From: Actinokineospora bangkokensis
GTDB taxonomy: Bacteria > Actinomycetota > Actinomycetes > Mycobacteriales > Pseudonocardiaceae
Direction: 5' to 3'
Length of the DNA stretch: 64,000 nt
NCBI RefSeq assembly: GCF_001940455.1
Contig: NZ_MKQR01000015.1
Span: 1-64,000, forward strand
The notes below the pieces were generated by a model. It made no database searches. It saw only the letters and a list, made by a program, of their open reading frames with translations, and was not told the DNA's origin. Shown here one piece after another: positions 24,217-39,292 of the stretch. How positions within the stretch are numbered: the first letter of the stretch is position 1; each line of letters opens with the position of its first letter. The position numbers and the translations under genes are program-made.

Positions 24217-25335
24217 ATGCGGGACCAACCGGCGACCCTGCGCGGCCAAGGGGAGGACGCTCCTCCGGGCGCGGTCGAGCGGCAGGCGCCCCCGCGCACG
24301 CGGCGGATCGACGGGCTCGACCTGCTGCGCGTGCTGGCCTGCTGCCTGGTCTTCTACACCCACGTCTCGACCTGGTACCGGTTCAAGAAGGACCCCCTGC
24401 CGCTCACCGGGGTGCTGGACTCGGCGGTGGTCGGCCCCCTGCACCTGAACAAGGACTTCGCCTTCCTGGGCGTGTCGCTGTTCTTCCTGATCAGCGGGTT
24501 CGTCATCGCGCACGTGGCGACCAGGGAGGGGGCCGCGGAGTTCGCCGTCAAGCGGGCGCTGCGCGTGTTCCCGCCGCTGTTCGCCGCGGTGCTGCTGGCC
24601 TGGGTGTTCGTGCTGCTGGGCTGGCTGTCGGTGCCCGGGGGCGAGGACGTCGGCTTCGGCGACCTGGTGGCGAACCTGTTCCTGGTCAACTTCTTCGCGC
24701 CGCAGCTGGTGACCCTGGTGGGCGTCGCCTGGACGCTGATCATCCAGCTCGGCGTCTACGCGATGGTCCTCGCCCTGCTCGCGGTGTTCCGGCGGATGCC
24801 GTGGCTGGCGATCGCCGTCCAGGTCACCGCCTGCATGGTGCTGCTGTCGGTGCTGTCGAACCTGCGGGGCCCGGTCGCCGCGTCGCTGGCGAACATCGGC
24901 GCGTTCGGCTGCGCGATCGTGCTCGGCCAGGTCATCTGGCTGGTGTGGTCGCGCCGAGCGCCGCTGTGGGCGGGCGTCCTGCTCGGCGCGCTGTGCTGGC
25001 TGGTGGTCAACACCGCCGAGGCCGGCGGCTACGGGCAGTCCGGCGACTCCTACCTGCTGACGATGACGCTCGCCGCGCTGGTCGTCTCGCTCGTGGTGGC
25101 CGCGGGCGGCCGGGTCAAGCGGGTGCGCGCGGTGGCGTTCCTGTCCGAGCGCAGCTACTCGATCTACCTGGTGCACCAGACGACCGCCTTCGCCGTGCTC
25201 GCCGGGCTGGCCGCGCACACCTGGTCGTCGGTGGCCGTGGCGGTGGCCGTCGCGGTGACCCTGGCCGTCGCCGAGGTCGTCCACCGGTTCGTCGAGCGGC
25301 CGTCGGCCCGGCTGGCCGCCAGGACGACCCGGTGA
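24217..25335 (+). CDS. OafA-type acyltransferase (acyltransferase 3)
   Basis: ATG 24217 follows GGGAGG. The 372-residue protein opens with the family signature RRIDGLDLLRVLACCLVFYTHVS. It has about ten hydrophobic helices, GVSLFFLISGFVIA and SERSYSIYLVH near the end. Such membrane enzymes move acetyl or other acyl groups from the cytoplasm onto surface sugars. It starts 44 bp after the glycosyltransferase fusion and overlaps the next acyltransferase by 4 bases (GTGA), so the glycan made here is probably acylated. Confidence 0.88.
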   Translation: MRDQPATLRGQGEDAPPGAVERQAPPRTRRIDGLDLLRVLACCLVFYTHVSTWYRFKKDPLPLTGVLDSAVVGPLHLNKDFAFLGVSLFFLISGFVIAHVATREGAAEFAVKRALRVFPPLFAAVLLAWVFVLLGWLSVPGGEDVGFGDLVANLFLVNFFAPQLVTLVGVAWTLIIQLGVYAMVLALLAVFRRMPWLAIAVQVTACMVLLSVLSNLRGPVAASLANIGAFGCAIVLGQVIWLVWSRRAPLWAGVLLGALCWLVVNTAEAGGYGQSGDSYLLTMTLAALVVSLVVAAGGRVKRVRAVAFLSERSYSIYLVHQTTAFAVLAGLAAHTWSSVAVAVAVAVTLAVAEVVHRFVERPSARLAARTTR

Positions 25336-26528
25336 CCGCACCCGCGCCGCGGGGCGCGCTGGTGCACGCCGCCCCGGTCCAGGGCAAGTCCCGGGTGGCG
25401 TTCCTGGACATCGGCCGCGGGATCGCCGCGCTGCTGGTCGTCTACACCCACATCTACAACGTGTTCATCCACGACTTCCGCGGCCAGCGCACCCCCGTCA
25501 CCGACGCCCTGGACGCGGCCTTCACCGTCCCGTTCAAGCTCGACGAGCAGGGCATCGGCGGGGTGGCGGTGCCCATGTTCTTCCTCATCAGCGGCTTCGT
25601 CGTCACCCCGATCGCGCTGCGGCTGGGAGCCCGCCGCTTCGCCGTCAACCGCCTGCTGCGCCTCTACCCGGTGCTGGTGTTCGTGGTGGCGGTGGCCGCG
25701 GTGCTGATCTCGCTGGGCCTGTCGCTGCTGTCGACCAAGCCCCAGCCGGTGACCCCGTGGACGCTGCTGTCCAACGCCTCGCTCTGGAACTTCATCGACC
25801 GCCCCTTCGGCTCCTGGGTGGCCGTGGCGTGGACGCTCGCCGTCGAGGTCCTGTTCTACGCCACCCTGCTGGCCGTGCTGCCGCTGCTGCGCACCCGGGT
25901 GTGGCTGGCCATCACCGTGCAGCTGTGGCTCGTGGCGATGCTGCTGATCACCCACCGCGCCTTCGGCGAGGAGTACCGCGCCCTCGTCATCAACATGACC
26001 TACACCCTGATCCCGCTCATGGGGCAGGTGGTCTGGGCGGCCTGCCAGAGGCACATCCCCGCCTGGCTGGCAGGCACCTTCATCACCGCCGCCTGGCTCC
26101 TGTTCGTCTGGGCGAGCCACCTGTCCGTCGACCCCGAGTACGTCCCCCGCGCCTTCCCCATCGCCGTCGCCCTGCTGCTGTTCCTCCTGGGCGTCTTCGC
26201 CGAACCCCACCTGCGCCAACGCCCCTTCTGGACCGCCCTGTCCGACCGCACCTACTCCATCTACCTCCTCCACGGCGTCGTGGCGTTCCCGGTGATGCAC
26301 TGGCTCATCGACGACCTCCCCCTGTGGCTGACCGTCCTGACCGCCGTCACCGCCACCTTCGCCGCCGCCGAACTGACCTTCCGCCTCGTGGAACGCCCCA
26401 GCCACAACCTCGCCCGCCGCCTGTCCCGCTCGCGGCGCACCCCCACCTCGCCGAGTGTTCGGCCGAGCCAAGACCCGGAGCAGACCACGCGCCTGACACC
26501 CGTGCGCGACTCCGCCCCACCCACCTGA
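25332..26528 (+). CDS. OafA-type acyltransferase (acyltransferase 3), second copy
   Basis: GTG 25332 overlaps the preceding stop by 4 bases. The 398-residue integral membrane protein has RVAFLDIGRGIAALLVVYTHI, GVAVPMFFLISGFVV and SDRTYSIYLLHG, the same landmarks as its neighbour. The two sequences are clearly diverged, suggesting different acyl donors or sugar positions. A polar, Pro/Thr-rich tail of about 45 residues ends the protein. It closes the putative glycan-modification operon; the next gene is on the other strand. Confidence 0.88.
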   Translation: MTAPAPRGALVHAAPVQGKSRVAFLDIGRGIAALLVVYTHIYNVFIHDFRGQRTPVTDALDAAFTVPFKLDEQGIGGVAVPMFFLISGFVVTPIALRLGARRFAVNRLLRLYPVLVFVVAVAAVLISLGLSLLSTKPQPVTPWTLLSNASLWNFIDRPFGSWVAVAWTLAVEVLFYATLLAVLPLLRTRVWLAITVQLWLVAMLLITHRAFGEEYRALVINMTYTLIPLMGQVVWAACQRHIPAWLAGTFITAAWLLFVWASHLSVDPEYVPRAFPIAVALLLFLLGVFAEPHLRQRPFWTALSDRTYSIYLLHGVVAFPVMHWLIDDLPLWLTVLTAVTATFAAAELTFRLVERPSHNLARRLSRSRRTPTSPSVRPSQDPEQTTRLTPVRDSAPPT

Positions 26529-26615: not shown

Positions 26616-28496
26616 TCAGCGGCTCACCCCAGCGTCGTAGGCGTCCGCTTGGATCTCGTACAGGTCGCGGTAGTGGCCGGGTTCGGCCATCAGGGTGACA
26701 TGGGTCCCCACCTGCGCCAGCCTGCCCTCGTGCATGACCAGGATGAGGTCGACCGTGCGGATGTTGGCCAGCCGGTGGGTGATCAGCACCGTGATCTTGT
26801 CACGCCCACCCAGGTCGCGCAGGGCGGCGAAGACGGCGTGCTCTGCCCGGGCATCGAGCGCGGCGGTCGGTTCGTCGGCGATCACCAGGGGTGCGTCGCG
26901 GTACAGGCCGCGGGCCACGGACAGGCGTTGCCACTGCCCACCGGAGAGGTCGTGCCCCGTGGCGAAGAGTCGGGACAGCAACGTCTCCCACCCGTTCGGC
27001 AGGGTTTGCGCGACCCGGTCAGCCCCCGAGTCACGAGCCGCGGCAGCGAAGTGGGCGTCCTCGGGATCGGCGCGCCCGATCCTGCCGACCCGGATGTTGT
27101 CCGCCGCCGATGATGGCCAGCGCAGGGGTGCCTGCATGACCATCGCCACCCTGTCGTTCAGGGCGTCCTCGTCCACCGAGGCGATGTCGACCCCGTTCCA
27201 GCGCACCGCGCCGCCGGTGGGCAGGTAGAGCCCGCTGATCAGCTTCGAGAGGGTCGTCTTGCCGGACCCGTTCTCCCCCACCAGGGCCACGACCTGTCCC
27301 CTGCGCAGGGTCGCCGAGACCGCGCGGACCGCGGGCTCCACCGCGTCCGGGTAGCTGAAGGTGACCTCGTCGAGGACGACCTCCTCGGGGTCCGGCGCCT
27401 CGACCGAGCCCGGCGCGCGGCGGTGGGCCGCTGCCCGCTCAAGGCAGCTGCGGAACACGTGGAGCGTGAGGCTGACCTGGTACAGGTTGTTCGCCTCCTG
27501 CACAGCCTGCGTCGCCCCGCCCGAGGCCGCTCGCATGGCCACGACGGCGGCACCCGCCACGGCGAGCGGCAGGACGCCGTGGGACACCAGCAGGAACAGG
27601 GCCAGGTACGCCGCCCCGGTCCCGATGCCGGACAACGCCCGACCGGCCAACAGCAGGGCCTCCCGCCGGTTGCTGGTCCGCACCGCCTCCGCGGTCAACC
27701 GCGCCGCGATCCGCCGGTGCTCGTCGAGCAGCAGACCGCGCGCCCCGCAGGCCCTGATCTCCGCCGCGGCCTCGCGGTCGGTGGTCAGGGCGGCGGTGAT
27801 GCCGATCCTCTTGCGGTGCGAGACCACGCGGACGTACGACGCGAAGGCCACCCGCGCCGACCGAGCCGACGCCCACGCTCGTGGGACCGCCGACAACAGC
27901 ACCAGGGGTGCCAGCAGCGGGTGCAGCACGGCGGCGGTCACCACCGACGCCGCCGAGGTCACCGCGGAACCGAGGATCTCGCCCGCGTCGGTGACCGCCG
28001 CCTTGAACTCGTCCGGCGCCTCGGTGCAGGCGCGCCCCAGCAGATCGGTGAACTCAGCGTCGTCGAAAGCCGCCGACTGGACCGCCAGCGCGGCCGCTGC
28101 CAACCGGTCGCGTGCCCGCGCCTCGACCAGGGGCGCCAGTGCGCCGGTGATCGCGGACACCACGCTGTCGAGCAGGCCGCGCAGCGCGAAGGCCACGACG
28201 ACGGCGATCAGCGCGGGCAGCGCGGCCACCAGCGGCGTACCGCCGTCGAGCAGACCGGTGAACGCGTCCGCGGTGGCCAGCAGGCCGAACGCGGTGACCG
28301 CGCCACTGGCGAGCCGCGCCGAACCCGCGGCGAGGGTCAAGGGCCGGGACGCCGCCCACGCCTCCCGCGCGATGAAGGTGAGGGTGGCGGGCAGGTCGCG
28401 CACGAGGGCGCGCAGGCCTGCGTCCGCCGCCGAGGCGTAGCCGGTCGCCCAGTCCGGGACGACCACCTCGTCCACCCCGATGAAGGGGCGGGTCAC
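26616..28496 (-). CDS. Lasso peptide ABC exporter (D protein)
   Basis: GTG 28496 overlaps the stop of the B2 protease gene by 4 bases (GTGA). The longer open frame upstream is a shadow of B2 and B1. The 626-residue half-transporter has an N-terminal membrane domain of about 350 residues. The ATPase domain has Walker A GENGSGKTT, signature LSGGQWQRLSVARG, Walker B LVIADEPTAALD and switch His in LITHRL. All motifs are intact, so a homodimer is expected. As last gene of the lasso operon it should export the mature peptide and give self-immunity. Confidence 0.9.
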   Translation of the reverse strand: MTRPFIGVDEVVVPDWATGYASAADAGLRALVRDLPATLTFIAREAWAASRPLTLAAGSARLASGAVTAFGLLATADAFTGLLDGGTPLVAALPALIAVVVAFALRGLLDSVVSAITGALAPLVEARARDRLAAAALAVQSAAFDDAEFTDLLGRACTEAPDEFKAAVTDAGEILGSAVTSAASVVTAAVLHPLLAPLVLLSAVPRAWASARSARVAFASYVRVVSHRKRIGITAALTTDREAAAEIRACGARGLLLDEHRRIAARLTAEAVRTSNRREALLLAGRALSGIGTGAAYLALFLLVSHGVLPLAVAGAAVVAMRAASGGATQAVQEANNLYQVSLTLHVFRSCLERAAAHRRAPGSVEAPDPEEVVLDEVTFSYPDAVEPAVRAVSATLRRGQVVALVGENGSGKTTLSKLISGLYLPTGGAVRWNGVDIASVDEDALNDRVAMVMQAPLRWPSSAADNIRVGRIGRADPEDAHFAAAARDSGADRVAQTLPNGWETLLSRLFATGHDLSGGQWQRLSVARGLYRDAPLVIADEPTAALDARAEHAVFAALRDLGGRDKITVLITHRLANIRTVDLILVMHEGRLAQVGTHVTLMAEPGHYRDLYEIQADAYDAGVSR

Positions 28497-28906
28497 CTCG
28501 GCCCCACCACCATGATCGGCGTGTAGGCGCAGAGGTGCGGGGCCTCGCCGATCGGGACCCCGTCCACCGACACCCAGGCGTGGGCGGTGAAGGGCTCGGT
28601 GCGCACACCGGTCTGCCATGTCGGCCACGCGCCCCGCGCCCGGCAGAGCAGAGCGGTCGCCACTGACCTCTGCAGGCACTGCTGACCGGCGCAGCGCCTG
28701 CTCACCGTGACGACCGCCGTCCTCGCCCTCAGCGCCTCGGCGGCGGTGGCGCGACGCGCCCCCGCACTGGCGAACCGGAGCGCCTGGCGCAGTCGTGCAG
28801 GTGGGAGCGCGACGAGCGCCCTGGCCACCGCCACTGCGAGCACCGCGACCACGCGCTGCCGAGGAGGCACCGTTGACGCCCTCTCCAAGGACACGGGCGT
28901 GGTCAT
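28493..28906 (-). CDS. Lasso peptide leader protease (B2, transglutaminase-like)
   Basis: The 137-residue protein matches actinobacterial lasso B2 enzymes. It has a variable helical N-terminus, then CAGQQCLQRSVATALLCR with the catalytic Cys (Cys77), and TAHAWVSVDGVPIGE with the catalytic His (His109) and an acid at Asp115 or Glu121. It cuts the leader from the precursor before ring closure and works only with the separate PqqD-like B1 protein encoded just upstream. Both neighbours overlap it by 4 bases. Confidence 0.92.
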   Translation of the reverse strand: MTTPVSLERASTVPPRQRVVAVLAVAVARALVALPPARLRQALRFASAGARRATAAEALRARTAVVTVSRRCAGQQCLQRSVATALLCRARGAWPTWQTGVRTEPFTAHAWVSVDGVPIGEAPHLCAYTPIMVVGPR

Positions 28907-29157
28907 GGCGCCAGCAACCCGGCGTTGCGCAGCGCCGTAACGAACGCGGCCGCGTCCGCGCGCACCCGGTCGGTGTCCGCCGGGTGGTCAGCGAGCAGCG
29001 CGTCGACCGCGACGTCGAGGCTTCGGCCCGCGAGCACGTGTGCGGCGATCGCCGCGCCGGTCTCGTTGACCTGCCAGTACCGGCCACGCCGCTCGTCGAG
29101 CAGCACCATGCCGTGCGGGGTCTTGGCCGCGGAGACCCCCTGCCGGAAAGCGGTCAT
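28903..29157 (-). CDS. Lasso peptide leader-binding protein (B1, PqqD-like RRE)
   Basis: ATG 29157 overlaps the cyclase stop by 4 bases (ATGA). The 84-residue protein has the PqqD/RRE fold pattern: VLLDERRGRYWQVNETGAAIAAH, then a helical C-terminus. In split lasso systems B1 binds the leader motif YxxPxL and presents the precursor to B2. The precursor here carries exactly that motif. Confidence 0.92.
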   Translation of the reverse strand: MTAFRQGVSAAKTPHGMVLLDERRGRYWQVNETGAAIAAHVLAGRSLDVAVDALLADHPADTDRVRADAAAFVTALRNAGLLAP

Positions 29158-30971
29158 CGTGTTCCTCCCGTCTTCAGCGGTGCGTGGTCCGTTGTCGTCC
29201 TCAACCAGGCCTCGCACGCCAAGGTCGTCAGCAGGTCCTGCAACCGCACCGCGTCCACGTGCAGGTCGACCAGTTCCGCGCGGAACTCCGCGGCATCGAT
29301 CAGACCGATCCTGGCCAGGACCATGTCCTCGCACTCCGCGACGATCCGGTCCCGGTTGGTCCGCATCCCGGCGAACAGGTCGGCGCTGAACTCGGCCTTG
29401 GTCCCGCGGTCGAGGATGTCGTCGGGCACGGTGCCGCGCATGGCCGCCGCGAGCACCGGCTTGTAGGCGTTCGCGTCGACCCGGTCCGCGAAGCGCACCG
29501 CCAGAGCCGCTTCCAGGACCCGGTCGTCGAGGAACGGTGCGTGCCAGCGGACACCCCGATCCGCGGCCACGCCATCGAGGTCACCGATGGTGCGCCCGGT
29601 CTGCTCCGCCACCGAGAGCACCGCGTGCTGCGCCCGCCACCGCGACGACGGCTCCGCGTCCTCCACGGACGCGCGCGCCAGCAGGTCGCGCACGGTGCGG
29701 ACCGCGTGCCCGGTGGACCACCAGGGCAGCCGGACGAGCTCTCCCCAGCCGTCCCTGCTCTGCGACCACGGCCGGGTACCACCCACCACCTCGGCCATGT
29801 GCCGCAGCCACGTGGCGTGCCCGCGGTTGTCGACGAGCGACGCCGCCGCGGCGACAAGCGGCTGCCGACGCACGGCCCGGTTGCCGCGGAAGACCCCCAG
29901 GTACCGCCACGGTGCCGTGCGCAGCGTGCTGTGGTCGACCGCGGGGGGCACGGTGAACAGCTCGTCCCCTCCGTAGCCGCTGAGGTGGTCGGTGATCCCG
30001 CGGCCGGCGAGCGCACCCAGCTGGTGCCCGATCACCGCCCTGGCCCGGATCCAGGGGAAGGGTGCCTCCCGGCTCGGCCCGGGAGCCAGCGCGTCGGTGA
30101 AGTTGTCCGGCACATCCGGCCGTTCGAAGACCAGGTGCCGCGCCCCGGGGAGCTCGGCGGCCGCCCTGCCCGCCCACAGCGGGTCGTCGGCGGTCGGGTC
30201 GGCGGCCGCGTAGCGGGTGGTCAACAGGCTGTCCACCCGTGGTGCGGCCAGGAAGGCCAGGCTCGTCGAGTCCATGCCGCCGGACAGGTCGGTGCTCACC
30301 CGGGTCCCCGGGGACGTCCGCGCCCGCACGGCGTCGGCCAGCGCGCCGAACACCCGTGGCGCCGCCACCGCCATCGGGGTGTCAGCCGCGGGCACCTGCC
30401 ACCAGCGCCGCACCCTGGCGGCGCCGTCGGGTGCGATGTCGAGGTGGCTGTCGCCCGGGACCTCCGAGACCCCCTTCCACAGCGGCGTGCGGTGCAGCGG
30501 CCACGGGGGCGCAGGCAGGAGCAGGTGCAGCGCCACCGAGTCCGGGTCGAGCCCCGCTCCCAGGAGGTCGGCCAGCGGACGGGCGCGGTCCGCGGCCACG
30601 GTGGCACCGTCGACGACGGCGTGGAAGACCCGGCGCACACCGACGACGCTGCCCTGGGCCCGGGTCCGGCCGTGGATGCTGGCCAGCAGGTGCACGCAAC
30701 CGGGGATGGTGGCGGCCCAGCGGTCCAGGTCCGCGGGTGCGGTGATCCGCCGGGCCGCGTCGGCCACCTCGGCCGGGGTGGTGGAGGTGCTGCCGAGCAC
30801 GACGACGCGTGTGCCGCCCACCGCTGCGCGCACCAGGTCGCCCGGTCGCCACCGACCCACCAGCCACGGTCTGCCCGAGGCGTGGTGGATCGTGGTCGCC
30901 GCCGGATCGGCCACCCGCTCCGCGACAGCGGCCCCCGCCGCGTTGTCGGAGAAGAGGAGGAAACCGCACAC
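29154..30971 (-). CDS. Lasso peptide macrolactam synthetase (C, asparagine-synthetase-like)
   Basis: GTG 30971 starts a 605-residue protein 16 bases after the precursor gene. The N-terminal half resembles the glutaminase domain (it keeps MCGF at the start). The synthetase half has the ATP-pyrophosphatase motif STDLSGGMDSTSLAF, DHLSGYGGDELF and HAPFLDDRVLEAAL. The enzyme adenylates the Asp side chain of the core and joins it to the new N-terminus to form the ring. Size and motifs are normal for actinobacterial lasso cyclases. Confidence 0.93.
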   Translation of the reverse strand: MCGFLLFSDNAAGAAVAERVADPAATTIHHASGRPWLVGRWRPGDLVRAAVGGTRVVVLGSTSTTPAEVADAARRITAPADLDRWAATIPGCVHLLASIHGRTRAQGSVVGVRRVFHAVVDGATVAADRARPLADLLGAGLDPDSVALHLLLPAPPWPLHRTPLWKGVSEVPGDSHLDIAPDGAARVRRWWQVPAADTPMAVAAPRVFGALADAVRARTSPGTRVSTDLSGGMDSTSLAFLAAPRVDSLLTTRYAAADPTADDPLWAGRAAAELPGARHLVFERPDVPDNFTDALAPGPSREAPFPWIRARAVIGHQLGALAGRGITDHLSGYGGDELFTVPPAVDHSTLRTAPWRYLGVFRGNRAVRRQPLVAAAASLVDNRGHATWLRHMAEVVGGTRPWSQSRDGWGELVRLPWWSTGHAVRTVRDLLARASVEDAEPSSRWRAQHAVLSVAEQTGRTIGDLDGVAADRGVRWHAPFLDDRVLEAALAVRFADRVDANAYKPVLAAAMRGTVPDDILDRGTKAEFSADLFAGMRTNRDRIVAECEDMVLARIGLIDAAEFRAELVDLHVDAVRLQDLLTTLACEAWLRTTTDHAPLKTGGTR

Positions 30972-30987
30972 GCGCGTCGTCCCCCGG

Positions 30988-31152
30988 CTAGTTCTTGTCG
31001 GCCCTGGGCAAGCGGGCGGGCTTCTGCGGGTTGTTCGAGTTGAAGTCGCGGTTGGCGAAGTCGTTCGAGGCCCCGGACCTGCCCAGGGTCATGGCGGCGA
31101 ACCCACCCGCCTCGGCGAGCATCGGGGGCTCGTAGGAGCTGGTGCTTTCCAT
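30988..31152 (-). CDS. Lasso peptide precursor (A)
   Basis: ATG 31152 has GGAGAAGG upstream. The 54-residue peptide carries the RRE-binding motif Y7-x2-P10-x-L12, then G16/G17 and Thr22 as penultimate leader residue. Cleavage after Leu23 gives a core beginning Gly24-Arg-Ser-Gly-Ala-Ser-Asn-Asp31. Gly1 and Asp8 can close an 8-residue macrolactam. The core then has a 23-residue loop and tail rich in Asn, Pro, Lys and Arg (Phe32, Phe37, Pro42, Pro45, Pro49) with no Cys, which makes it a class II peptide. A 31-residue core is longer than most known lasso peptides. Confidence 0.9.
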   Translation of the reverse strand: MESTSSYEPPMLAEAGGFAAMTLGRSGASNDFANRDFNSNNPQKPARLPRADKN

Positions 31153-31204
31153 GCCTTCTCCTTGTTCGGTGTAGGTGGAGTGACCCGACGAGCGTCGCGA
31201 CCGG

Positions 31205-31264: not shown

Positions 31265-31338
31265 CCGGGAACGTTCTGCGATGGCGTCGACCGGGCGGCC
31301 GTGCCGTCCGGCAGCACGAGTCGGGGATGGGAGGACGT

Positions 31339-32148
31339 GTGGCCGTCGCGGTGCGGGTACTCGGCGATCTGGTGGTCATGGCGCACGGCGAGGAGATCGT
31401 CGTCACGGCCGCCAAGCAACGCGGGCTGCTGCGGATCCTGGCTCTGCACCGCGGTGGTGCGCTGGCCACTGACGAGTTGGTGGCTCTGCTCTGGGACGGC
31501 AACCCACCCAAATCCGCCAGGACGACGCTGCGCGGTTATGTGCGTCGCTTGCGCGCCGCGGTCGCGGAACCGATCGTGGAAAGCGTCGCGGCCGGTTACC
31601 GCATTGCCGCATCCGCTTCGGTCGACCTGACCGAGTTCCACGCGAAAGTCGCCGCTGCGCGCCACTGCACGCACCCTCGACGGGAACTGGAGCTCTTGCG
31701 AGAAGCCGTCGTCCTGTGGCGCGGCGATCCCCTGCAGGGGTTGACCGGCGACTGGGCCGAGACCTTCTCCAGCGAATTGGAGCAGGATCGGTTGCACGCC
31801 GTGGAACGCCTCCTGCGCCTGGAACTGCAAGTCGGCGATCCCGGTGTCATCGCGGACACCGCCCGCAAGGTCCTGCGCCACCACCCGTTCCGGGAGCAGC
31901 TCTGGCACACGCTGCTCTCCGCACTCCACGCCACGAACCGCACAGCGGAAGCCCTGGCCGCCTACGCGGAGTTCCGCATCACCCTCGCCCACAACCTCGG
32001 CATCGATCCCTCCCCCGCACTACGTCGCCTGCACCAACACCTCCTCGACAACACCCTGGTCACGCCTGCTGCGAGATCAGGGCCTCCGACGCGGCGGTCG
32101 AGGCCTCCGCGAACACCTGCTCGACCGCGCCGCAGACCACGGTGCTGA
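31339..32148 (+). CDS. SARP-type (AfsR/DnrI) transcriptional regulator
   Basis: GTG 31339 lies 4 bases after GGAGG; ATG 31327 is an in-frame alternative. The 269-residue protein has a winged-helix OmpR-type DNA-binding domain (KQRGLLRILALHRGGALATDELVALLW, RGYVRRLRAAV) and a bacterial transcriptional activator domain (ELELLREAVVLWRGDPLQGLTG to ALAAYAEFRITLAHNLGIDPSPALRRLHQHLL). It is divergent from the lasso operon and probably activates it. The last 28 codons are Arg/Pro-rich and look non-conserved, so the natural domain end is near 32060. Confidence 0.9.
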   Translation: MAVAVRVLGDLVVMAHGEEIVVTAAKQRGLLRILALHRGGALATDELVALLWDGNPPKSARTTLRGYVRRLRAAVAEPIVESVAAGYRIAASASVDLTEFHAKVAAARHCTHPRRELELLREAVVLWRGDPLQGLTGDWAETFSSELEQDRLHAVERLLRLELQVGDPGVIADTARKVLRHHPFREQLWHTLLSALHATNRTAEALAAYAEFRITLAHNLGIDPSPALRRLHQHLLDNTLVTPAARSGPPTRRSRPPRTPARPRRRPRC

Positions 32149-32635: not shown

Positions 32636-33679
32636 TCAGGCGGCAGGGCGGTTCAGGCGCGCGTCGACCAGGGCTTGGGCTGCGCGGAGGGGGGTGGTGT
32701 CGCGGGCGGCGGCGTCATCGAGCAGGGCGGTGAGGTGGGGGCCGATGGCTTTGACGCGGTCGTGGGATTCGGTGGCGGTGCGACCGTGCAGTTCGCGGGC
32801 GGTGGCCGCGATGATGCCGCCCGCGCTGACGACGGTGTCCGGGGCCCAGAGGATGTTGCGGGCGTGAAGCAGGTCGGCGGTGGAGTCGTGGTCGAGTTGG
32901 TTGTTGGCGGCGCCCGCGATGGCGCGGCAGCGCAGTTCCCCGACCGTGGCCGGGGTGAGGATGCCGCCGGTGGCGCAGGGGATGAGGACGTCGACGTCGG
33001 CGCGGACGGCGTGGGCGGGGGTTGTCCAGCGGGCCCCCCAGCGGGCCGCCAGCGCCCGGCGACGGGGGTCGAGGTCGGTGGCGGTGAGGGTGGCGCCGCG
33101 TCGGGCCAGCCAGTCCCCGACGAGGGTGCCGACGTGGCCGAGGCCGATGAGGGAGAAGGTCAGGGTGGCGAGGTCGGTGCCGGGCCAGCGGTGCCCGCAC
33201 ACGGCTTCCAGGGCGGCGGTGACGCCCAGTGCCGTGGGGACGGCCGAGTCGCCGCTGCCGCCGTCCGTCTCGGGGCGGCACAGGACGTGGGGGGTGCGGG
33301 TGTGCAAGCGGGCCATGTCGTCGGGGCTGGTGCCGATGTCCGGGCCGGTGACGTAGGTGCCGCCGAGGCCGTTGACGACGTCGGCGATGTCGTCGAGCAG
33401 GTCGGCCCTGGCGGGGCCGGTCCAGTCGGCGGAGGTGGTGCCGTCGAGTACGACGACGGTCTTGCCGCCGCCGTGGTCGAGCCCGGCCAGGGCCGCCTTC
33501 CGGGTCATGGCTGCCGAGAGCCGCAGGACGTCGTCGAGGCCGTCGCGCCAGGTCGGGTAGGGCGTGACGCGGCACCCGCCCAGCGCGGGGCCGAGCCGGG
33601 TGGAGTCGACGCTGACCATGATCGTCTGCCGGGAGCGCGGGCCTCGTTCGACCACGACCCGCTCCGGGGTCGGGGTCAC
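32636..33679 (-). CDS. Leu/Phe/Val-type amino acid dehydrogenase
   Basis: GTG 33679 overlaps the upstream DUF2000 stop by 4 bases (GTGA). The much longer open frame to the right is a shadow. The 347-residue protein has the catalytic block MTRKAALAGLDHGGGKTVVV, the second TGPDIGTSPDDM block, and the NAD domain GLGHVGTLVGDWLARRGATL, ending with GAANNQLDH. This family reversibly deaminates branched-chain or aromatic amino acids to 2-oxo acids with NAD. The divergent Lrp regulator fits amino-acid control. Which amino acid is used is not decided by sequence. Confidence 0.9.
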   Translation of the reverse strand: MTPTPERVVVERGPRSRQTIMVSVDSTRLGPALGGCRVTPYPTWRDGLDDVLRLSAAMTRKAALAGLDHGGGKTVVVLDGTTSADWTGPARADLLDDIADVVNGLGGTYVTGPDIGTSPDDMARLHTRTPHVLCRPETDGGSGDSAVPTALGVTAALEAVCGHRWPGTDLATLTFSLIGLGHVGTLVGDWLARRGATLTATDLDPRRRALAARWGARWTTPAHAVRADVDVLIPCATGGILTPATVGELRCRAIAGAANNQLDHDSTADLLHARNILWAPDTVVSAGGIIAATARELHGRTATESHDRVKAIGPHLTALLDDAAARDTTPLRAAQALVDARLNRPAA

Positions 33680-34098
33680 GCGCCCGCTCCCAGCAGCCGC
33701 AGGCGGCGGGTCAGCGGGGAGATGAGGGCGCGGGGGCCGAACAGGGCGACGGCCACCTGCCTCAGGTGCTCGCCCGGGGTCTGCGCGAGCACGTTCAGGT
33801 AGTCGTCGTGGTCGCGGGCCTGGCGGGCGGTGTCGTTGAAGCCGACCACGGTCACCTCGTCCTGTTCCCGTGCTCGGCGGTGGAGCTCTTCGAGTTCGGC
33901 CGGGGTGGCGGTGAGCACCGGGACCGGGTGGGGGTTGAGCGCCGCGTGCACACCGCCGGAGGCGTCCTCGCCCTCCGCGCCGAGCAGGTGCGAGGTCCGG
34001 GCGCCCAGGCTCAGGCCGACGACCACGGCCGCGTTCACCGCCTCGCCCGGTGCCAGGTCGGATCGGACGACCAACACCATCTTGGTCGGCAATGCCAT
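33676..34098 (-). CDS. DUF2000 family protein
   Basis: ATG 34098 follows GGAGGAG. The 140-residue protein begins MALPTKMVLVVRSDLAPGEAVNAAVVVGLSLG and contains VPVLTATPAELEELHRRAREQD, as in DUF2000 (PTH2-like fold). It is translationally coupled to the amino-acid dehydrogenase and divergent from an Lrp gene. The context ties this uncharacterised family to amino-acid metabolism. It is only distantly similar to the other DUF2000 protein at 7392-7820. Confidence 0.8.
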   Translation of the reverse strand: MALPTKMVLVVRSDLAPGEAVNAAVVVGLSLGARTSHLLGAEGEDASGGVHAALNPHPVPVLTATPAELEELHRRAREQDEVTVVGFNDTARQARDHDDYLNVLAQTPGEHLRQVAVALFGPRALISPLTRRLRLLGAGA

Positions 34099-34204
34099 CT
34101 TTTCTCCTCCGGTTGACTGGTGATCGACCGTCAGAGTAGGCATTCAGCCAGCCCAGAAGCTCTCCACCGATCGTTTGACCGGAACTGGTGGCAGACTGAC
34201 CGCC

Positions 34205-34666
34205 GTGGACGAACTTGATGCGGCGATCATCGACCTGGTCCAGACAGATGCGCGGCAGTCCAACCGCGAGCTGGCCCGACGACTGGGCATCGCGCCATCG
34301 ACCTGCCTCGAACGGGTGCGGGCCCTGACCCGCCGGGGGGTGATCCGCGGGTACCACGCCGAGATCGACCTCGTGGCCCTCAACCGGGGTGTCCAGGCGT
34401 TCATCGCCGTGCAGGTGCGGCCGTTGAACAGGCAGGTCATCGACGCGTTCAAGGAGGCGGTCGGCGGGATGCCCGAGGTGCTGGCGGTCTTCGTCCTGGC
34501 GGGGGGCGACGACTTCCAGCTGCACGTCGCCGTCCAGGACCTCGACCACCTGCACTCGTTCCTCGTGGACCGGCTCAGCGGGCGCCGCGAGGTGGTCGGC
34601 TTCCGCAGTTCGGTGATCTACGAGCGCGTCCACAACCCGGTCCTCGCCCCGCTGCCCGCGCCGTGA
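34205..34666 (+). CDS. Lrp/AsnC family transcriptional regulator
   Basis: GTG 34205 gives the normal Lrp opening VDELDAAIIDLVQTDARQSNRELARRLGIAPSTCLERV, with the HTH at about residues 20-40. The C-terminal RAM ligand domain follows (VQAFIAVQVRP...VFVLAGGDDFQLHVAVQDLDHLHSFL). Total 153 residues, the family norm. It is divergent from the DUF2000/dehydrogenase operon and most likely senses the amino acid that enzyme acts on. Confidence 0.92.
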   Translation: MDELDAAIIDLVQTDARQSNRELARRLGIAPSTCLERVRALTRRGVIRGYHAEIDLVALNRGVQAFIAVQVRPLNRQVIDAFKEAVGGMPEVLAVFVLAGGDDFQLHVAVQDLDHLHSFLVDRLSGRREVVGFRSSVIYERVHNPVLAPLPAP

Positions 34667-34674
34667 GGACGGGG

Positions 34675-35859
34675 TCAGGCGGGGGTGAGTTCGAGGGGGA
34701 GGTGTTCGAGGCGGTGGATGATGTTGTTGGGGGACCACCGCGGCGGTCCTGCGGGGGCGAGGGTCGCCACTCGGGCGACGAGGGCGGCCAGGAACGCCTC
34801 GGTCTCCAGGCGGGCGAGGCCTTGGCCCGCGCAGCCGTGCTTGCCCTGGCCGAAGGCCAGGTGGCGGGAGGCGTTGCGGTGGATGGTGAAGGTGTCCGGG
34901 TCCTCCCAGACCAGGGGGTCCCGGTTGGCTGAGGCGTAGAGGACGAGGACGCGGGTGCCCGCGGGCAGGGCGGTGCCCGCCAGTTCGGTGTCGTGCGCGA
35001 CCTTGCGGGAGAAGGCGCGGAGCGGGGAGGCGAAGCGGAGGACCTCGTTGACCGCGTTGGGGATGAGGGTGGGGTCCTGCCTGAGGTGCTGCCACTGGGC
35101 GGGGTGGGTGGCGAAGAGGTGGAGGGCGCCCGCGATGCCGCTGAGGGTGGTGTCGAGGGAGGGGGCGAGGTAGTCGATCATCAGGGCGGGGCACTCGGCG
35201 TGGGTGAGCGTGCCGTTGTCGGCGGCGGTCAGCAGGTCGGCGCCCATGCTGCCGGGGAGGGCGGTGCGGTGCCTGACGACGTCGCGGGCGAAGCGCATCA
35301 TGGCCAGGCCTGCGGGGATCGCCTTGACCGCTTGGCCGTTGGCGGGGCCCAGGGCGTCGAAGGTCGCCGCGCCCCAGGTGAGCAGGTGCTCCCGGCCCTC
35401 CTGGGGCCAGCCCACGAGGTCGGGGACGACCGACAGGGGGAGCGCGGCGGCGAGTTCGGCGCCGTCGACGGTGCGGCGGGCCACCGCGGCGGCGACGATC
35501 TCGTCCGCGCGGCGCCGGATGTCGTCGGTCAGGTCGCGCAGGGCCCGGGGGGTGAGCCGGTGGGCGACGAGGGCTCGGCGGCGGGTGTGGTCCTCGCCGT
35601 CGCTGGTGAGCGTCGTGCCGCGGGACAGGCGGTTGATGACGGGGTTGAGCCCGACGCCGTCGCCGGAGACGAAGGTCTTGTGGTCGAGCAGCGCGGCCCG
35701 GCACTCGGCGTAGCGGGGCAGGGCGTAGGCGTTGTGCTTGGGCAGCCGCACGACCGGGCCGAGTTCGCGCAGCGCCGCGTAGTGCGGGTAGGGGTCGAGG
35801 ATGGCTCGCGGGGAGTAGATGTCCGGCCGGTAGACGGGGACATCGGGTCGTCGGGGCAT
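34675..35859 (-). CDS. Cytochrome P450
   Basis: The 394-residue soluble P450 has the I-helix acid-alcohol pair in APSLDTT (Asp236-Thr237), the ExxR motif in NEVLR (272-275), and the heme loop FGQGKHGCAGQ with Cys343 as ligand. The SLDTT I-helix is a variant of AGxDTT. It is the last gene of a five-gene leftward operon with an extradiol dioxygenase, FAH hydrolase, acyl-CoA synthetase and flavin monooxygenase. A role in hydroxylating or demethylating an aromatic or alkyl-aromatic substrate is inferred. Redox partners are not encoded nearby. Confidence 0.93.
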   Translation of the reverse strand: MPRRPDVPVYRPDIYSPRAILDPYPHYAALRELGPVVRLPKHNAYALPRYAECRAALLDHKTFVSGDGVGLNPVINRLSRGTTLTSDGEDHTRRRALVAHRLTPRALRDLTDDIRRRADEIVAAAVARRTVDGAELAAALPLSVVPDLVGWPQEGREHLLTWGAATFDALGPANGQAVKAIPAGLAMMRFARDVVRHRTALPGSMGADLLTAADNGTLTHAECPALMIDYLAPSLDTTLSGIAGALHLFATHPAQWQHLRQDPTLIPNAVNEVLRFASPLRAFSRKVAHDTELAGTALPAGTRVLVLYASANRDPLVWEDPDTFTIHRNASRHLAFGQGKHGCAGQGLARLETEAFLAALVARVATLAPAGPPRWSPNNIIHRLEHLPLELTPA

Positions 35860-35871
35860 GGTGCTCCTCGG

Positions 35872-37353
35872 TCAGCGGCGCGCGGTGGACCGCGGCAGGG
35901 CTCGGTGGAGCCGGGTGGTGCTTCGGCCCGCGGCCAGGACTGTCCCGTCTGGACGGACGAGGGCGGCTCCGGACCCGAGCCACCGGCGCAGCTCGCGCGA
36001 CTCGCCGGTGGTGACCACGACGGCACCGCGCTCCTGGAAAGCGGCGCGTTCGGCCTCGGACGGGGTGGTGGCGGTCACGACGGCGAACGAACCGCCCGCG
36101 ACGTCGTCGAAGCGGCGGCCGTCGTCGAGCAGGGCGTTGGGGCACAACCGCCCCGCGGCGGACCGGGGCAGGCGCGGCCGCAGGACGAGGTCCGACCGGC
36201 GCAGGGCGGGCGTCGCGCTGTCGAGGGTGCGGCCGCTGAGCAGGGGTGCGGCGATCCGGCGGATCAGGTCGCCGAGGCGGCCGCCCTCGGTCATGGCCTT
36301 GCCGATGAGCACCGCGCGCCGGATCATCGAGCGGGCGTGCGGCTTGCGCTCGGTCTCGTAGGAGTCGAGCGCGGACTCGGGCAGGGTGCCGCCGAGGACG
36401 CCCGCGAGCTTCCAGGCCAGGTTCACCGCGTCGCGCAGCCCGGCGCCCATCCCCTGGCCGATGAACGGCGGGGTGAGGTGGGCGGCGTCGCCGAGCAGGA
36501 ACACCCTGCGGTCGCGCCACCGGTCGGCCAGGCGCGCGCGGAAGGTGTACTCGGCCACCCGGACGACCTCCAGGTCGGCCGCGGGGACGGCCCCGGTCCA
36601 CGGCGCGATCAGCGGGTGCAGGCGGTCCACCGCGCGGAAGTCGTCCCCGGTCTCGCCGGGCAGCAGGCGGAACTCCCAGCGGTAGCGGGTCTTGCCGATG
36701 CGCATGTAGGTCGCCGCGCGGTCGAGGTCGCACACCTGGTGCACGCCCTCCCACTCGTCGAGGTCGGCGGTGGTGGCGATGTCCACCACGAGCCAGCGCT
36801 GCTCGAACCGCAGGTCCGCCATCCGCGCGCCGATCGCCGCCCTCGTGGGGCTGTTGGCGCCGTCGCAGCCCAGGACGTAGTCGGCGTGGACCGTCGCCCG
36901 CTCGCCGGTGGCGCGGTCGGTCACCTCGACCTGGGCGCCCCCGGCGTCCTGGGTGATGCCGGTGACCTCGGTGCCGCCGCGCAGGGTGACGGTGGCCAGG
37001 TCCGCCAGGGCCGCGCGCAGCAGGTGCTCCAGGTCGGGCTGGTCGAACATGCTGGCCTGGGGGTGGCCGTGCCTGCCGCCGTCCGGTGAGCGGGGGAACT
37101 CGGCCAGCACCCGCAGGTCCGGGTCGAGCAGCCGCAGCCCGCGGCAGGGCCAGGAGATCGCCGCGAACCGCTCGGCCAGGCCCAGCCTGCCGAGGATGCG
37201 CAGGACCTCGTCGTCCAGGTGCACCGCGCGGGGTTGCGGGTACACCGAGTCCCACCGGTCGAGGACCAGGCACTCGACGCCGAAGCCGCCGAGCAGGGCC
37301 GCGGCGGTGAGGCCGGTGGGGCCAGCGCCGACGATGACGACCGGCACCCTCAC
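35872..37353 (-). CDS. FAD-dependent aromatic hydroxylase (MhpA-like)
   Basis: GTG 37353 follows GGGGAGG. The 493-residue flavoprotein has the ADP motif VVIVGAGPTGLTAAALL, the DG motif VLGCDGANSPTR and the second FAD motif RVFLLGDAAHLTPPFIGQGMGAGLRDAVNLAWKL, with a thioredoxin-like C-terminal region. It resembles 3-(3-hydroxyphenyl)propionate hydroxylase and related phenol hydroxylases, which add the second hydroxyl before ring cleavage. The neighbouring extradiol dioxygenase would use the resulting catechol. Twelve bases separate it from the P450 gene. Confidence 0.9.
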   Translation of the reverse strand: MRVPVVIVGAGPTGLTAAALLGGFGVECLVLDRWDSVYPQPRAVHLDDEVLRILGRLGLAERFAAISWPCRGLRLLDPDLRVLAEFPRSPDGGRHGHPQASMFDQPDLEHLLRAALADLATVTLRGGTEVTGITQDAGGAQVEVTDRATGERATVHADYVLGCDGANSPTRAAIGARMADLRFEQRWLVVDIATTADLDEWEGVHQVCDLDRAATYMRIGKTRYRWEFRLLPGETGDDFRAVDRLHPLIAPWTGAVPAADLEVVRVAEYTFRARLADRWRDRRVFLLGDAAHLTPPFIGQGMGAGLRDAVNLAWKLAGVLGGTLPESALDSYETERKPHARSMIRRAVLIGKAMTEGGRLGDLIRRIAAPLLSGRTLDSATPALRRSDLVLRPRLPRSAAGRLCPNALLDDGRRFDDVAGGSFAVVTATTPSEAERAAFQERGAVVVTTGESRELRRWLGSGAALVRPDGTVLAAGRSTTRLHRALPRSTARR

Positions 37354-37405
37354 CGCGGCCTCCCCGGGGCCGGGGGCGGCGCTGTCGCTGTGCTCATGGC
37401 GGTCC

Positions 37406-39292
37406 TCACGGCTGGTCTGCGGGGTGGGTGACCTCGACGCGCACGGGCACGGCGAAGCGGCCCAGGGCGGCGGTCACGGCCGCCTCGTCCGCCTCCGGTG
37501 CCAGGCGGGCGGTGGCGACCACCGCGCCGTCCTCGACCACGGCGTCCATGGTGACCCCGCCGAGCGGGTCGAGCACCTCGGCCAGCGCGCGCCGGGTGGC
37601 GTCGGCGCGCAGGGCGAGCTTGTAGGGCTTGCCGATGTCGGTGATGGGCAGCGCGTCGAGCACCGTGACGGCCTTGGGCGCCGCGGCGCGCTCGGGCACC
37701 CGGTCGCCGGCCCAGGCCACCAGGTCGGCGCCGGTCGCCGCGGCGCCGGGCACGAGGGTCACGTAGGCGACGGGGACCTCACCGGCGTGCTCGTCGGGCC
37801 TGCCGACCGCGCTCGCCGCGGTGACCTCGGGGTGGGCCAGCAGGGCGTCCTCGATGGTCGCCGGGTCGATGTTGTGGCCGCCGCGGATGATGAGGTCCTT
37901 GGCGCGGCCGGTCAGGTGCACGAACCCGTCGGCGTCGAGGCGGGCCAGGTCGCCGGTGTCCAGCCAGCCCCCGTCCAGCGTGCCGAGGCCGTCGAGCACG
38001 GGCCCCGCCCCGTCGCGCCCGACGACGTACCCGGGGAACACGGTGGGTCCGCTGATGGCCAGCACGCCGGTCTCGCCGGGCGGCAGGTCCTCCCCCGTCA
38101 CCGGGTGGACGACCTTCACCCGCTGGTACGGCAGGCGCTGGCCGACGGCCCCGGCGCGCGGGGCGTCGGGGAAGCTGCGGGCGCTGGCGCACGTGGCCTC
38201 GGTGAGCCCGTAGCCCTCGACCAGGGTGACGCCGGTGTGGGCCTGGAAGCCCTCGCGCACCGCGGCGGGCAGCGGCGAGGCGCCGACCATGGCGTAGCGC
38301 AGGCAGGAGATGTCGGCGTCGACCGGGCAGTGGGTGAGCACCGCGTACACCGTGGGCACCGCGCTCATCGCGGCGATCCGGTGGTGCTCGACGATCTTCC
38401 AGAACTCCCCGTACAGCGCGGGCTCGCGGTAGCCGAGCGGCCCGGCCCACACCGCGTGCTGGCCCTTGAACAGGGGCGCGAGCAGGGTGACCACCAGGGC
38501 GTTGACGTGGAACAGCGGCAGCGCGGCGAACACGGTGGCGGTGTCGTCGAGCAACGAGTTGACGGCGATCATCCACGCGTCGCTGACCTCGTTGGCGTGG
38601 GTGTGCGCGGCCAGCTTCGGCGTCCCGGTGGTGCCGCCGGTGTGGAACAGCGAAGCCAGGTCCCCGGCCGCGGGTGGTGCGCCGTCGAAGCCGTCCGCGC
38701 CGTGGTCGGCGGCGAGGTCGTGCAGGTAGCCGACGCGCACGCCGTCGAGGGCGGGCAGCGCCGGGGGTTCGCCGGTGGCGCCGGTGGGGCGCAGCACGAG
38801 CAGGACGTCCAGCTCGTCGGCGAGCGCGCGGGCGGTCTCCCACACCTCGGGGGCGAGTTCCGGCCCGGCGGTGACGAGGACGCGGGCCCCGGACAGGCGG
38901 AGCAGTTGGGTGAGGTGGGCGCGGGACAGGCCCGCGTTGAGCGGGGCGGCGATCCCCGCCAGCTGCGCCCCCAGGGTCGCCGGGACCAGCTCGGCGCAGT
39001 TCGGCGACATGAGGGCGACGGCGTCGGTGCGGCCGATCCCCGAGGCGCGCAGCAGGTTCGCGCAGCGGTGGACCTCGGCGAGCAGGTCCGCGAACGTCCG
39101 GCCCTCGGGTTCGCGCCACCGGGCCGCGCTGGGCAGCACGGTGGTGGCCGGGCGGTCCGGCCACGCCCGCGCGGCGCGCCGGAGCAGCGCGTAGGTCGAC
39201 TCCGGCAGGCCGCGGTCGGCCAGCGGGACGGCCTCGATCGCGGCCAGGTCGTCCGGGCCCGCGCACCGGGGCCACAGCAGCTCGTCGCTCAT
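37406..39292 (-). CDS. Acyl-CoA synthetase (AMP-dependent)
   Basis: The 628-residue adenylate-forming enzyme has the phosphate loop SLFHTGGTTGTPK, VEGYGLTEAT, GWLDTGDLARLDADGFVHLTGRAKDLIIRGG, and the C-terminal catalytic Lys in ITDIGKPYKL. It overlaps the FAH-family gene by 4 bases (ATGA). In this operon it would activate an aromatic or ring-cleavage carboxylic acid with coenzyme A. An extra C-terminal stretch of about 60 residues after GKPYK is slightly longer than usual. Confidence 0.92.
   Translation of the reverse strand: MSDELLWPRCAGPDDLAAIEAVPLADRGLPESTYALLRRAARAWPDRPATTVLPSAARWREPEGRTFADLLAEVHRCANLLRASGIGRTDAVALMSPNCAELVPATLGAQLAGIAAPLNAGLSRAHLTQLLRLSGARVLVTAGPELAPEVWETARALADELDVLLVLRPTGATGEPPALPALDGVRVGYLHDLAADHGADGFDGAPPAAGDLASLFHTGGTTGTPKLAAHTHANEVSDAWMIAVNSLLDDTATVFAALPLFHVNALVVTLLAPLFKGQHAVWAGPLGYREPALYGEFWKIVEHHRIAAMSAVPTVYAVLTHCPVDADISCLRYAMVGASPLPAAVREGFQAHTGVTLVEGYGLTEATCASARSFPDAPRAGAVGQRLPYQRVKVVHPVTGEDLPPGETGVLAISGPTVFPGYVVGRDGAGPVLDGLGTLDGGWLDTGDLARLDADGFVHLTGRAKDLIIRGGHNIDPATIEDALLAHPEVTAASAVGRPDEHAGEVPVAYVTLVPGAAATGADLVAWAGDRVPERAAAPKAVTVLDALPITDIGKPYKLALRADATRRALAEVLDPLGGVTMDAVVEDGAVVATARLAPEADEAAVTAALGRFAVPVRVEVTHPADQP

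What the first reader, a model, noticed from the sequence alone, without database searches (positions are those of the whole stretch)
30988..31152. Lasso peptide precursor with an exceptionally long 31-residue core
The sequence shows a 54-residue precursor with the YxxPxL leader motif, penultimate Thr22 and predicted core Gly24 to Asn54. Asp at core position 8 gives an 8-residue ring, leaving a 23-residue loop and tail rich in Pro, Asn, Lys and Arg. Known lasso cores are mostly 15-24 residues; only a few, such as pandonodin, are much longer. There is no Cys to staple the tail. A long basic tail could be trimmed, or could bind a target. I do not recognise this core sequence.
Basis: partly seen in the sequence, partly recalled or inferred. 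Interest (0 to 1): 0.82.

Follow-up and report, generated by a model that had tools for sequence, protein, structure and literature searches.

The report
Lasso peptide gene with long tail
This is a complete gene cluster for a new lasso peptide (a small peptide knotted through its own ring) whose predicted product carries an unusually long, cysteine-free, positively charged tail; it looks real, but whether the tail is kept or trimmed off is not known.

Summary
On the minus strand, 30988-31152 encodes a 54-aa lasso precursor: curated leader match (NF033521, 26.5 bits, cutoff 19), Thr at -2, Gly1, Asp8, 31-aa core, no Cys. The cluster is complete: lasA-lasC-lasB1-lasB2-ABC transporter, with a divergent SARP-type regulator. 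No relative of the core was found in 15 other genus genomes, 395 others of a phylum sample, or, beyond leader-type and chance-like matches among those inspected, in 389 family genomes. Long is right, unique is not: 5 of 135 precursors beside related cyclases have predicted cores of 28 aa or more, and pandonodin (33 aa) is published. The cyclase sits in a clade whose seven other members have 17-18-aa cores with two tail cysteines and a longer lasA-lasC spacer, with a strong hairpin in six of seven. In the window cysteines and hairpin are gone and the frame runs 14 residues further, to 16 bases before lasC. All 31 core codons end in G or C. Best reading: an 8-residue ring plugged near Phe14 with a long basic tail; trimming to 15-18 residues is the main rival.

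The parts
31084..31152 (-). lasA leader, 23 aa, YxxPxL motif and Thr at -2
   Evidence: sequence; NF033521 26.5 bits over cutoff 19
30991..31083 (-). lasA predicted core, 31 aa, Gly1-Asp8 ring, no Cys
   Evidence: sequence; third-position GC 31 of 31 codons
30991..31032 (-). C-terminal extension, core residues 18-31 (NPQKPARLPRADKN), beyond the 17-18-aa length of the nearest LasC clade
   Evidence: comparison with L003-L009; third-position GC 14 of 14
30988..30990 (-). lasA stop codon TAG
31158..31163 (-). AAGGAG, probable ribosome-binding site of lasA
   Evidence: sequence
30972..30987 (-). 16-base lasA-lasC spacer with GGGGGA before the GTG start of lasC; no strong hairpin
29154..30971 (-). 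lasC, asparagine-synthetase-like macrolactam cyclase, 605 aa
   Evidence: PF00733 121 bits; NF033561 232 bits, below its cutoff of 300; SGG and HAPFLD motifs present, 59 of 61 near-invariant columns kept
28903..29157 (-). lasB1, PqqD-like leader-binding protein
   Evidence: NF033530 92.1 bits over cutoff 70; PF05402
28493..28906 (-). lasB2, transglutaminase-like leader peptidase
   Evidence: NF033537 116.9 bits over cutoff 33; PF13471
26616..28490 (-). lasD, ABC transporter (start codon uncertain)
   Evidence: PF00005 102 bits; full-length matches to MsbA-type models below their cutoffs
31327..32148 (+). divergent SARP-type regulator (BTAD plus Trans_reg_C domains)
   Evidence: PF03704 121 bits, PF00486 29.7 bits

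Best explanation
A complete lasso peptide cluster. B1 binds the leader, B2 cuts after Leu23, and LasC joins the amino group of Gly1 to the side chain of Asp8, giving an 8-residue ring (GRSGASND). I infer that the chain is held near Phe14, the position that holds Trp or Leu in one core type of the nearest clade, so that about 17 residues (Asn15-Asn31; basic, Pro- and Asn-rich, no Cys) hang below the plug as a free tail, and that the ABC transporter exports the product. In origin the precursor appears to derive from a 17-18-residue, two-cysteine (class IV type) core that lost its cysteines and the hairpin-bearing lasA-lasC spacer and gained about 14 coding residues. Shown: gene content, frame, clade position of LasC, absence of Cys and of a strong hairpin. 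Inferred: threading, plug, retention of the tail, direction of change, any target.
For: Leader, B1 and B2 pass curated cutoffs. LasC keeps 59 of 61 columns near-invariant in 29 relatives, with SGG and HAPFLD motifs. The LasC tree puts the window with L003-L006, support 99/94, inside a clade of eight (99/96) whose seven other members have 17-18-aa cores with two tail Cys. The three best LasC matches of the class sample (L207-L209) also have 19-21-aa cores with two tail Cys. Aromatic residues at core 9 and 14 and Gly at 4 are shared with GGGGRGYDYSRQCWIIC-type cores. The tail keeps coding-type composition: third-position GC 16 of 16 for residues 16-31, log10 likelihood ratio about 2 for coding over uniform GC; in the other family precursor with a 31-aa core (L095) 4 of the last 11 codons end in A or T. 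Added tail residues are well tolerated by some lasso systems (PMC13352647, passages).
Against: No relative of the core was found, so no conservation test of the tail is possible. Similarity of the first 17 residues to the sister cores is weak: shuffle p about 0.03 for one core type and 0.12 for the other, and 13 of 31 and 14 of 29 other cores with Gly1 and an acid at 8 reach the same score (some of these are the sister cores of the other type). A different lasso family (GSASGSSDASGQSFN type) resembles residues 1-15 better, though its LasC lies elsewhere in the tree. The window LasC is on a long branch (0.82; the seven other tips of the clade 0.03-0.27) and, in a looser leave-one-out count, departs from 5 of 80 conserved columns against 0-4 of 77-81 for the seven clade members, which could mean relaxed constraint. 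Added tail residues usually lower yield (PMC13352647, passage).
Confidence: 0.5

Rival explanations
1. The C-terminal part is a follower-like extension that proteases remove after threading; the mature lasso peptide is about 15-18 residues (GRSGASNDFANRDFN to ...SNN).
For: The nearest clade ends at 17-18 residues; the GSASGSSDASGQSFN-type cores end at 14-16 residues, many with an aromatic at position 14 or 15; carboxypeptidase trimming of tails down to the plug is reported in expression (PMC13352647, passages), and albusnodin was seen without its last Cys (PMC9266682, passages).
Against: No protease other than B2 was found among the cluster genes tested by profile; the tail holds three prolines, which slow many exopeptidases (recalled); third-position GC argues that the tail has been kept as coding sequence.
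Confidence: 0.28
2. A large-loop lasso: the chain threads further down, near Arg24-Arg27, leaving a loop of about 16-19 residues and a short tail, as in achromonodin-1.
For: Achromonodin-1 is reported with a 20-aa loop and 30 aa in total (PMC13352647, passage); Arg, Leu and Lys near the end could plug (inference).
Against: No aromatic residue lies after Phe14; the nearest LasC relatives have short cores.
Confidence: 0.1
3. Recent accident: loss of the old stop codon and hairpin spacer let translation run into the spacer; the product is poorly made or not functional.
For: Spacer only 16 bases and without a strong stem, whereas 6 of 7 clade relatives have a stem score of at least 34; long LasC branch and 5 of 80 departures; only 1 of 16 genus genomes, the window's own, has the precursor at E 0.01.
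Against: Third-position GC 16 of 16 in residues 16-31 (chance about 0.001-0.01 at uniform 66-75% GC); leader, B1 and B2 over curated cutoffs and LasC motifs present; spacers of 13-17 bases also occur beside cores of 13-16 aa in L064, L071 and L080.
Confidence: 0.1
4. Not a lasso precursor; chance ORF.
For: None found.
Against: Leader model over cutoff, ribosome-binding site, operon position and codon composition.
Confidence: 0.02

Closest known systems
Class IV lasso peptides of the LP2006 and felipeptin kind (that the relatives' cores are of this kind is recalled; no sequences of these were seen in a paper)
   Same: LasC falls in one clade with clusters that have GRPSWGFEADWSCVMVC- and GGGGRGYEYNKQCLIFC-type cores
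   Different: Window core is 31 aa instead of 17-18, has no Cys, one precursor instead of two as in L003-L006, and no hairpin spacer before lasC
Pandonodin
   Same: Very long core (33 aa) and long tail (18 aa) (PMC13352647, passage)
   Different: Pandonodin is class IV, with a tail-tail disulfide (same passage), from Pandoraea norimbergensis (PMC7549694, passage); the window core has no Cys
Achromonodin-1
   Same: Class II, no disulfide, 30 aa in total (PMC13352647, passage)
   Different: Record loop of 20 aa; the window has no aromatic residue late in the core
Albusnodin and ikarugamycin family cyclases (NF033561)
   Same: Best NCBIfam model for LasC, 232 bits
   Different: Below the curated cutoff of 300; no acetyltransferase gene within the las operon
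GSxSGSxDANGQxY-type lasso family of the same bacterial family (24 of 390 genomes at E 0.001)
   Same: Residues 1-15 look alike: Asp8 and an aromatic at 14
   Different: LasC in a separate clade (five clusters tested), cores 14-16 aa, different leader

Membership tests
Lasso peptide cluster | Leader with YxxPxL and Thr at -2 | tested here: met
   NF033521 26.5 bits, cutoff 19; sequence
Lasso peptide cluster | Small residue at core 1 and Asp or Glu at 7-9 | tested here: met
   Gly1 and Asp8
Lasso peptide cluster | B1, B2 and C genes, open and with their motifs | tested here: met
Lasso peptide cluster | Bulky plug residue in the tail | tested here: inconclusive
   Phe14 is a candidate by position only
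Lasso peptide cluster | Threaded product | not testable with these tools
   needs mass spectrometry and NMR
Class IV lasso (LP2006, felipeptin, pandonodin) | Two Cys in the tail | tested here: not met
   No Cys in the core
Class IV lasso (LP2006, felipeptin, pandonodin) | Cyclase in one clade with those of two-Cys-tail cores | tested here: met
   LasC tree, support 99/96 and 99/94; that these are LP2006 and felipeptin types is recalled
Class II lasso | No disulfide possible | tested here: met
   No Cys in the core
NF033561 albusnodin/ikarugamycin cyclase | Score over curated cutoff | tested here: not met
   232.4 against 300 bits
GSxSGSxDANGQxY-type lasso family | LasC of that clade | tested here: not met
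   L165-L168 and L176 form a separate clade

The most novel reading that the evidence does not exclude
A two-part lasso peptide: a threaded head of about 15-17 residues and a retained, basic, proline-containing arm (NPQKPARLPRADKN) that acts as a second binding module, which arose when a Cys-stapled class IV lineage swapped its tail disulfide and its lasA-lasC hairpin for a coding extension. The KPARLPR stretch recalls proline-rich ribosome-binding peptides, but that is memory only; a search of the PDB with 20 tail residues found nothing at E 10.
Probability: 0.13. Interest if true: 0.7.

Novelty: new variant of a known kind. Interest (0 to 1): 0.42.

Why it matters
If the 31-mer is made intact it would be among the longest lasso peptides known, the record total quoted in a 2026 review being 33 aa (PMC13352647, passage), without a disulfide to hold the tail, and from a cyclase whose near relatives sit beside Cys-containing 17-18-mers. 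The pair (window LasC against L003-L006 LasC) would make testable what lets a lasso cyclase accept long tails, useful for fusing cargo to lasso peptides. It also suggests that lasso precursors can lengthen by taking over the lasA-lasC spacer.

Tried and rejected
Relatives of the core: genus, 1 of 16 genomes at E 0.01, the window's own; phylum sample, 1 of 396 at E 0.02, its own; genome contigs, 0 confirmed of 416 pattern matches; plasmids, none. Of these I read the 29 loci L032-L060 (no motif ORF was found for several) and 12 larger contexts: the lasso-type matches cover leader and ring start (leader plus residues 1-15 for the GSASGSSDASGQSFN type); matches over the tail in L169, L172 and L175 look like chance matches in low-complexity frames. 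A genome-contig scan with LasC also confirmed none of 49 pattern matches, so no relative carries an organism name.

Frameshift as cause of the tail: not needed; the other frames show no lasso-like sequence and the in-frame codons keep third-position GC. A stop-loss origin can be neither shown nor excluded without a sister strain.

Homology of the core to its LasC clade: weak. Resemblance to the GSASGSSDASGQSFN type is better (shuffle p 0.015 for the best score, 0.005 for the mean; 0 of 34 other cores reach the best score) but was noticed after the fact, and the LasC tree does not support it. Neither is used as proof.

Proline-rich ribosome-binding tail: recalled resemblance only; PDB sequence search empty.

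Hairpin literature: one search; I read none of its papers for this. Papers on pandonodin, felipeptins and the 2017 lasso survey are not held.

Structure prediction was not run: a 31-residue threaded core without relatives would give no useful model (judgement).

Counts: one search listed 134 LasC places in 99 of 390 genomes; 134 upstream regions were scanned, 100 gave 107 precursors (94 distinct cores), 34 gave none with my leader profile and cutoffs. The class sample gave 28 further places, 26 with 28 precursors, 2 with none. The core start of L123 is uncertain. The first hairpin control (1 of 48) used only spacers of 40-250 bases from the first 60 table rows; it was replaced by a matched one.

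Found wrong on checking: two of the ten proteins (24279-25332, 25367-26525) were given in a wrong frame and returned nothing; in the right frames they are acyltransferases. The output was cut; one search replaced it.

Full report
Observation. The minus strand at 30988-31152 encodes a 54-residue precursor, leader MESTSSYEPPMLAEAGGFAAMTL and core GRSGASNDFANRDFNSNNPQKPARLPRADKN. The curated lasso leader model NF033521 matches residues 7-26 at 26.5 bits against a cutoff of 19. Thr22 is at -2, Gly24 is core 1, Asp31 is core 8, and there is no Cys. AAGGAG at 31158-31163 precedes the ATG. The finding's numbers are right; it did not state the strand.

Surroundings. On the same strand follow lasC (29154-30971), lasB1 (28903-29157; NF033530, 92.1 bits over 70), lasB2 (28493-28906; NF033537, 116.9 bits over 33) and an ABC transporter (26616 to about 28490). 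LasC matches NF033561 (albusnodin/ikarugamycin cyclases) at 232 bits, below that model's cutoff of 300. It has SGG and HAPFLD motifs and keeps 59 of 61 columns near-invariant in 29 relatives; in a looser leave-one-out count it departs from 5 of 80 conserved columns, against 0-4 of 77-81 for the seven members of its clade. A divergent regulator with BTAD and Trans_reg_C domains starts at 31327; a SARP gene is mentioned for actinobacterial lasso clusters in PMC5974421 (passages). The las operon itself holds no tailoring gene. Beyond lasD, on the plus strand and convergent, lie two membrane acyltransferases (PF01757; 24217-25335 and 25332-26528), directly after a glycosyltransferase/FkbM gene; I found no relatives of them in five lasso contexts of 14 kb (L202-L206), so I count them as neighbours, though acylation of the product is not excluded. 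The genome has one LasC match at E 1e-60 or better.

How rare is the length? LasC relatives were found in 99 of 390 family genomes, at 134 places. The 134 upstream regions were scanned with a leader profile built from 30 segments: 100 regions gave 107 precursors, median core 17 aa, 104 of 107 at most 21 aa; the three longer ones are the window (31), L095 (31) and L123 (30, core start uncertain); 34 regions gave none. In a class sample (22 of 394 genomes with a LasC match at E 1e-80) 28 more places gave 28 precursors, with cores up to 41 aa (L224) and 30 aa (L222). Together 5 of 135 have cores of at least 28 aa. These are predictions. In print, a 2026 review gives pandonodin (33 aa, 18-aa tail) and achromonodin-1 (30 aa, 20-aa loop) as the records for tail and loop (PMC13352647, passages only). 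So the core is a marked outlier among its relatives and close to the published records, but not without company.

Is the tail coding sequence? All 31 core codons end in G or C, while first and second positions have 15 and 16 of 31. For residues 16-31 it is 16 of 16; at uniform GC of 66-75% this has a chance of about 0.001-0.01, and a simple likelihood ratio favours coding about 100 to 1. By contrast 4 of the last 11 codons of the other family precursor with a 31-aa core (L095) end in A or T. The test is small and there is no relative with which to test selection.

Where it comes from. A maximum-likelihood tree of 37 LasC proteins (30 from the best family places, 7 from contexts of leader matches) places the window with L003-L006 (support 99/94), inside a clade of eight with L007-L009 (99/96); the window branch is long (0.82, the other seven tips 0.03-0.27). 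The other seven members have cores of 17-18 aa with two Cys in the tail, such as GGGGRGYDYSRQCWIIC and GRPSWGFEADWSCVMVC, and so do the three best LasC matches of the class sample, L207-L209, at 19-21 aa (not in the tree). From memory these look like felipeptins and LP2006, class IV lasso peptides; a review names both as class IV (PMC9266682, passages), but I saw no sequences in print. The window lacks both Cys. Ungapped, its first 17 residues share Gly1, Gly4, Asp8 and aromatic residues at 9 and 14 with the first type, but this is weak by shuffling (p about 0.03) and not specific (13 of 31 other cores with Gly1 and an acid at 8 score as high, some of them sister cores). Residues 1-15 resemble another lasso family of the same bacterial family better (GSASGSSDASGQSFN; p 0.015 for the best score, 0.005 for the mean, 0 of 34 other cores reach the best score), though that was noticed afterwards and its cyclase is in a separate clade. 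Both comparisons put the usual end of the peptide at 14-18 residues.

The spacer. In the clade, the spacer between the nearest precursor found and lasC is 93-847 bases, with best stem scores 42, 28, 41, 41, 44, 34 and 38 for L003-L009 (6 of 7 at least 34, 5 of 7 at least 36), and 47, 34 and 41 for L207-L209. Shuffles of the same seven spacers reach 34 in 0, 1, 0, 0, 4, 4 and 5 of 200. Over the family set 34 of 99 spacers of at least 40 bases reach 36, against 1 of 495 shuffled copies; ten pieces of the window lasC reach at most 25. In the window the spacer is 16 bases, and the best stem in lasA plus spacer scores 17. So the frame runs to just before lasC and no such hairpin is there. Short spacers (13-17 bases) also occur in L064, L071 and L080 with cores of 13-16 aa, and about two thirds of the family spacers have no such hairpin, so a short or plain spacer does not by itself go with a long core. 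The order of events (Cys loss, hairpin loss, extension) is inference.

How it most likely works. Shown: a complete and apparently intact cluster, a coding 31-residue core, no Cys. From established lasso biology: B1 binds the leader, B2 cuts it off, LasC closes the Gly1-Asp8 ring around the chain, and D exports. Inferred: a plug near Phe14 and a free basic tail of about 17 residues. Added tail residues usually lower yield but are well tolerated in some systems (PMC13352647, passages), so a full-length product is plausible; trimming by host carboxypeptidases is the main rival.

Verdict. A real, new lasso peptide cluster with an unusual Cys-free long tail, in a lineage that otherwise has short two-Cys cores: a new variant of a known kind. 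A function for the tail is unproven.

Noticed in passing
window 24217-26528, plus strand: Two membrane acyltransferases (PF01757, 93.0 and 99.5 bits) convergent with lasD and directly after a glycosyltransferase/FkbM gene; probably glycan modification, but they are the only possible tailoring enzymes seen beside the lasso operon. No relatives in L202-L206.
   Followed up: partly
L165-L168, L177-L201: A lasso family with 14-16-aa cores of the type GSxSGSxDANGQxY/F, matched in 24 of 390 family genomes; in L165-L168 matches to B1 and B2 lie in one open frame and LasC forms its own clade. I did not recognise it.
   Followed up: partly
L224 upstream of lasC: Predicted 41-aa lasso core rich in Gly (GRWGWGHDYFHRR...FIV), longer than the records quoted; L227 with a similar start has 19 aa.
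   Followed up: no
L222 and L218 upstream of lasC: Predicted cores of 30 and 25 aa made mostly of Gly, Tyr, His and Arg (GYYGGHRR...), unlike usual lasso cores.
   Followed up: no
lasA-lasC spacers of the relatives, e.g. L003, L005-L007, L207: Strong GC-rich hairpins between lasA and lasC in 34 of 99 spacers of at least 40 bases against 1 of 495 shuffled copies; possibly set the ratio of precursor to enzyme.
   Followed up: partly
L003-L006 upstream of lasC: Two different precursors (17 and 18 aa cores, each with two Cys) in tandem before one lasC.
   Followed up: no
window 32636-39292: Beyond the regulator: Glu/Leu/Phe/Val dehydrogenase, DUF2000, AsnC regulator, P450, FAD monooxygenase and AMP-binding ligase; may be part of another biosynthetic cluster.
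   Followed up: no
window 20303-24172: 1289-aa protein with glycosyltransferase domains and a C-terminal FkbM methyltransferase domain.
   Followed up: no
window 30988-31152: Only solved-structure sequence near the precursor is the MS-271 lasso precursor (8itg_B, E 0.0075), over leader and first core residues.
   Followed up: no
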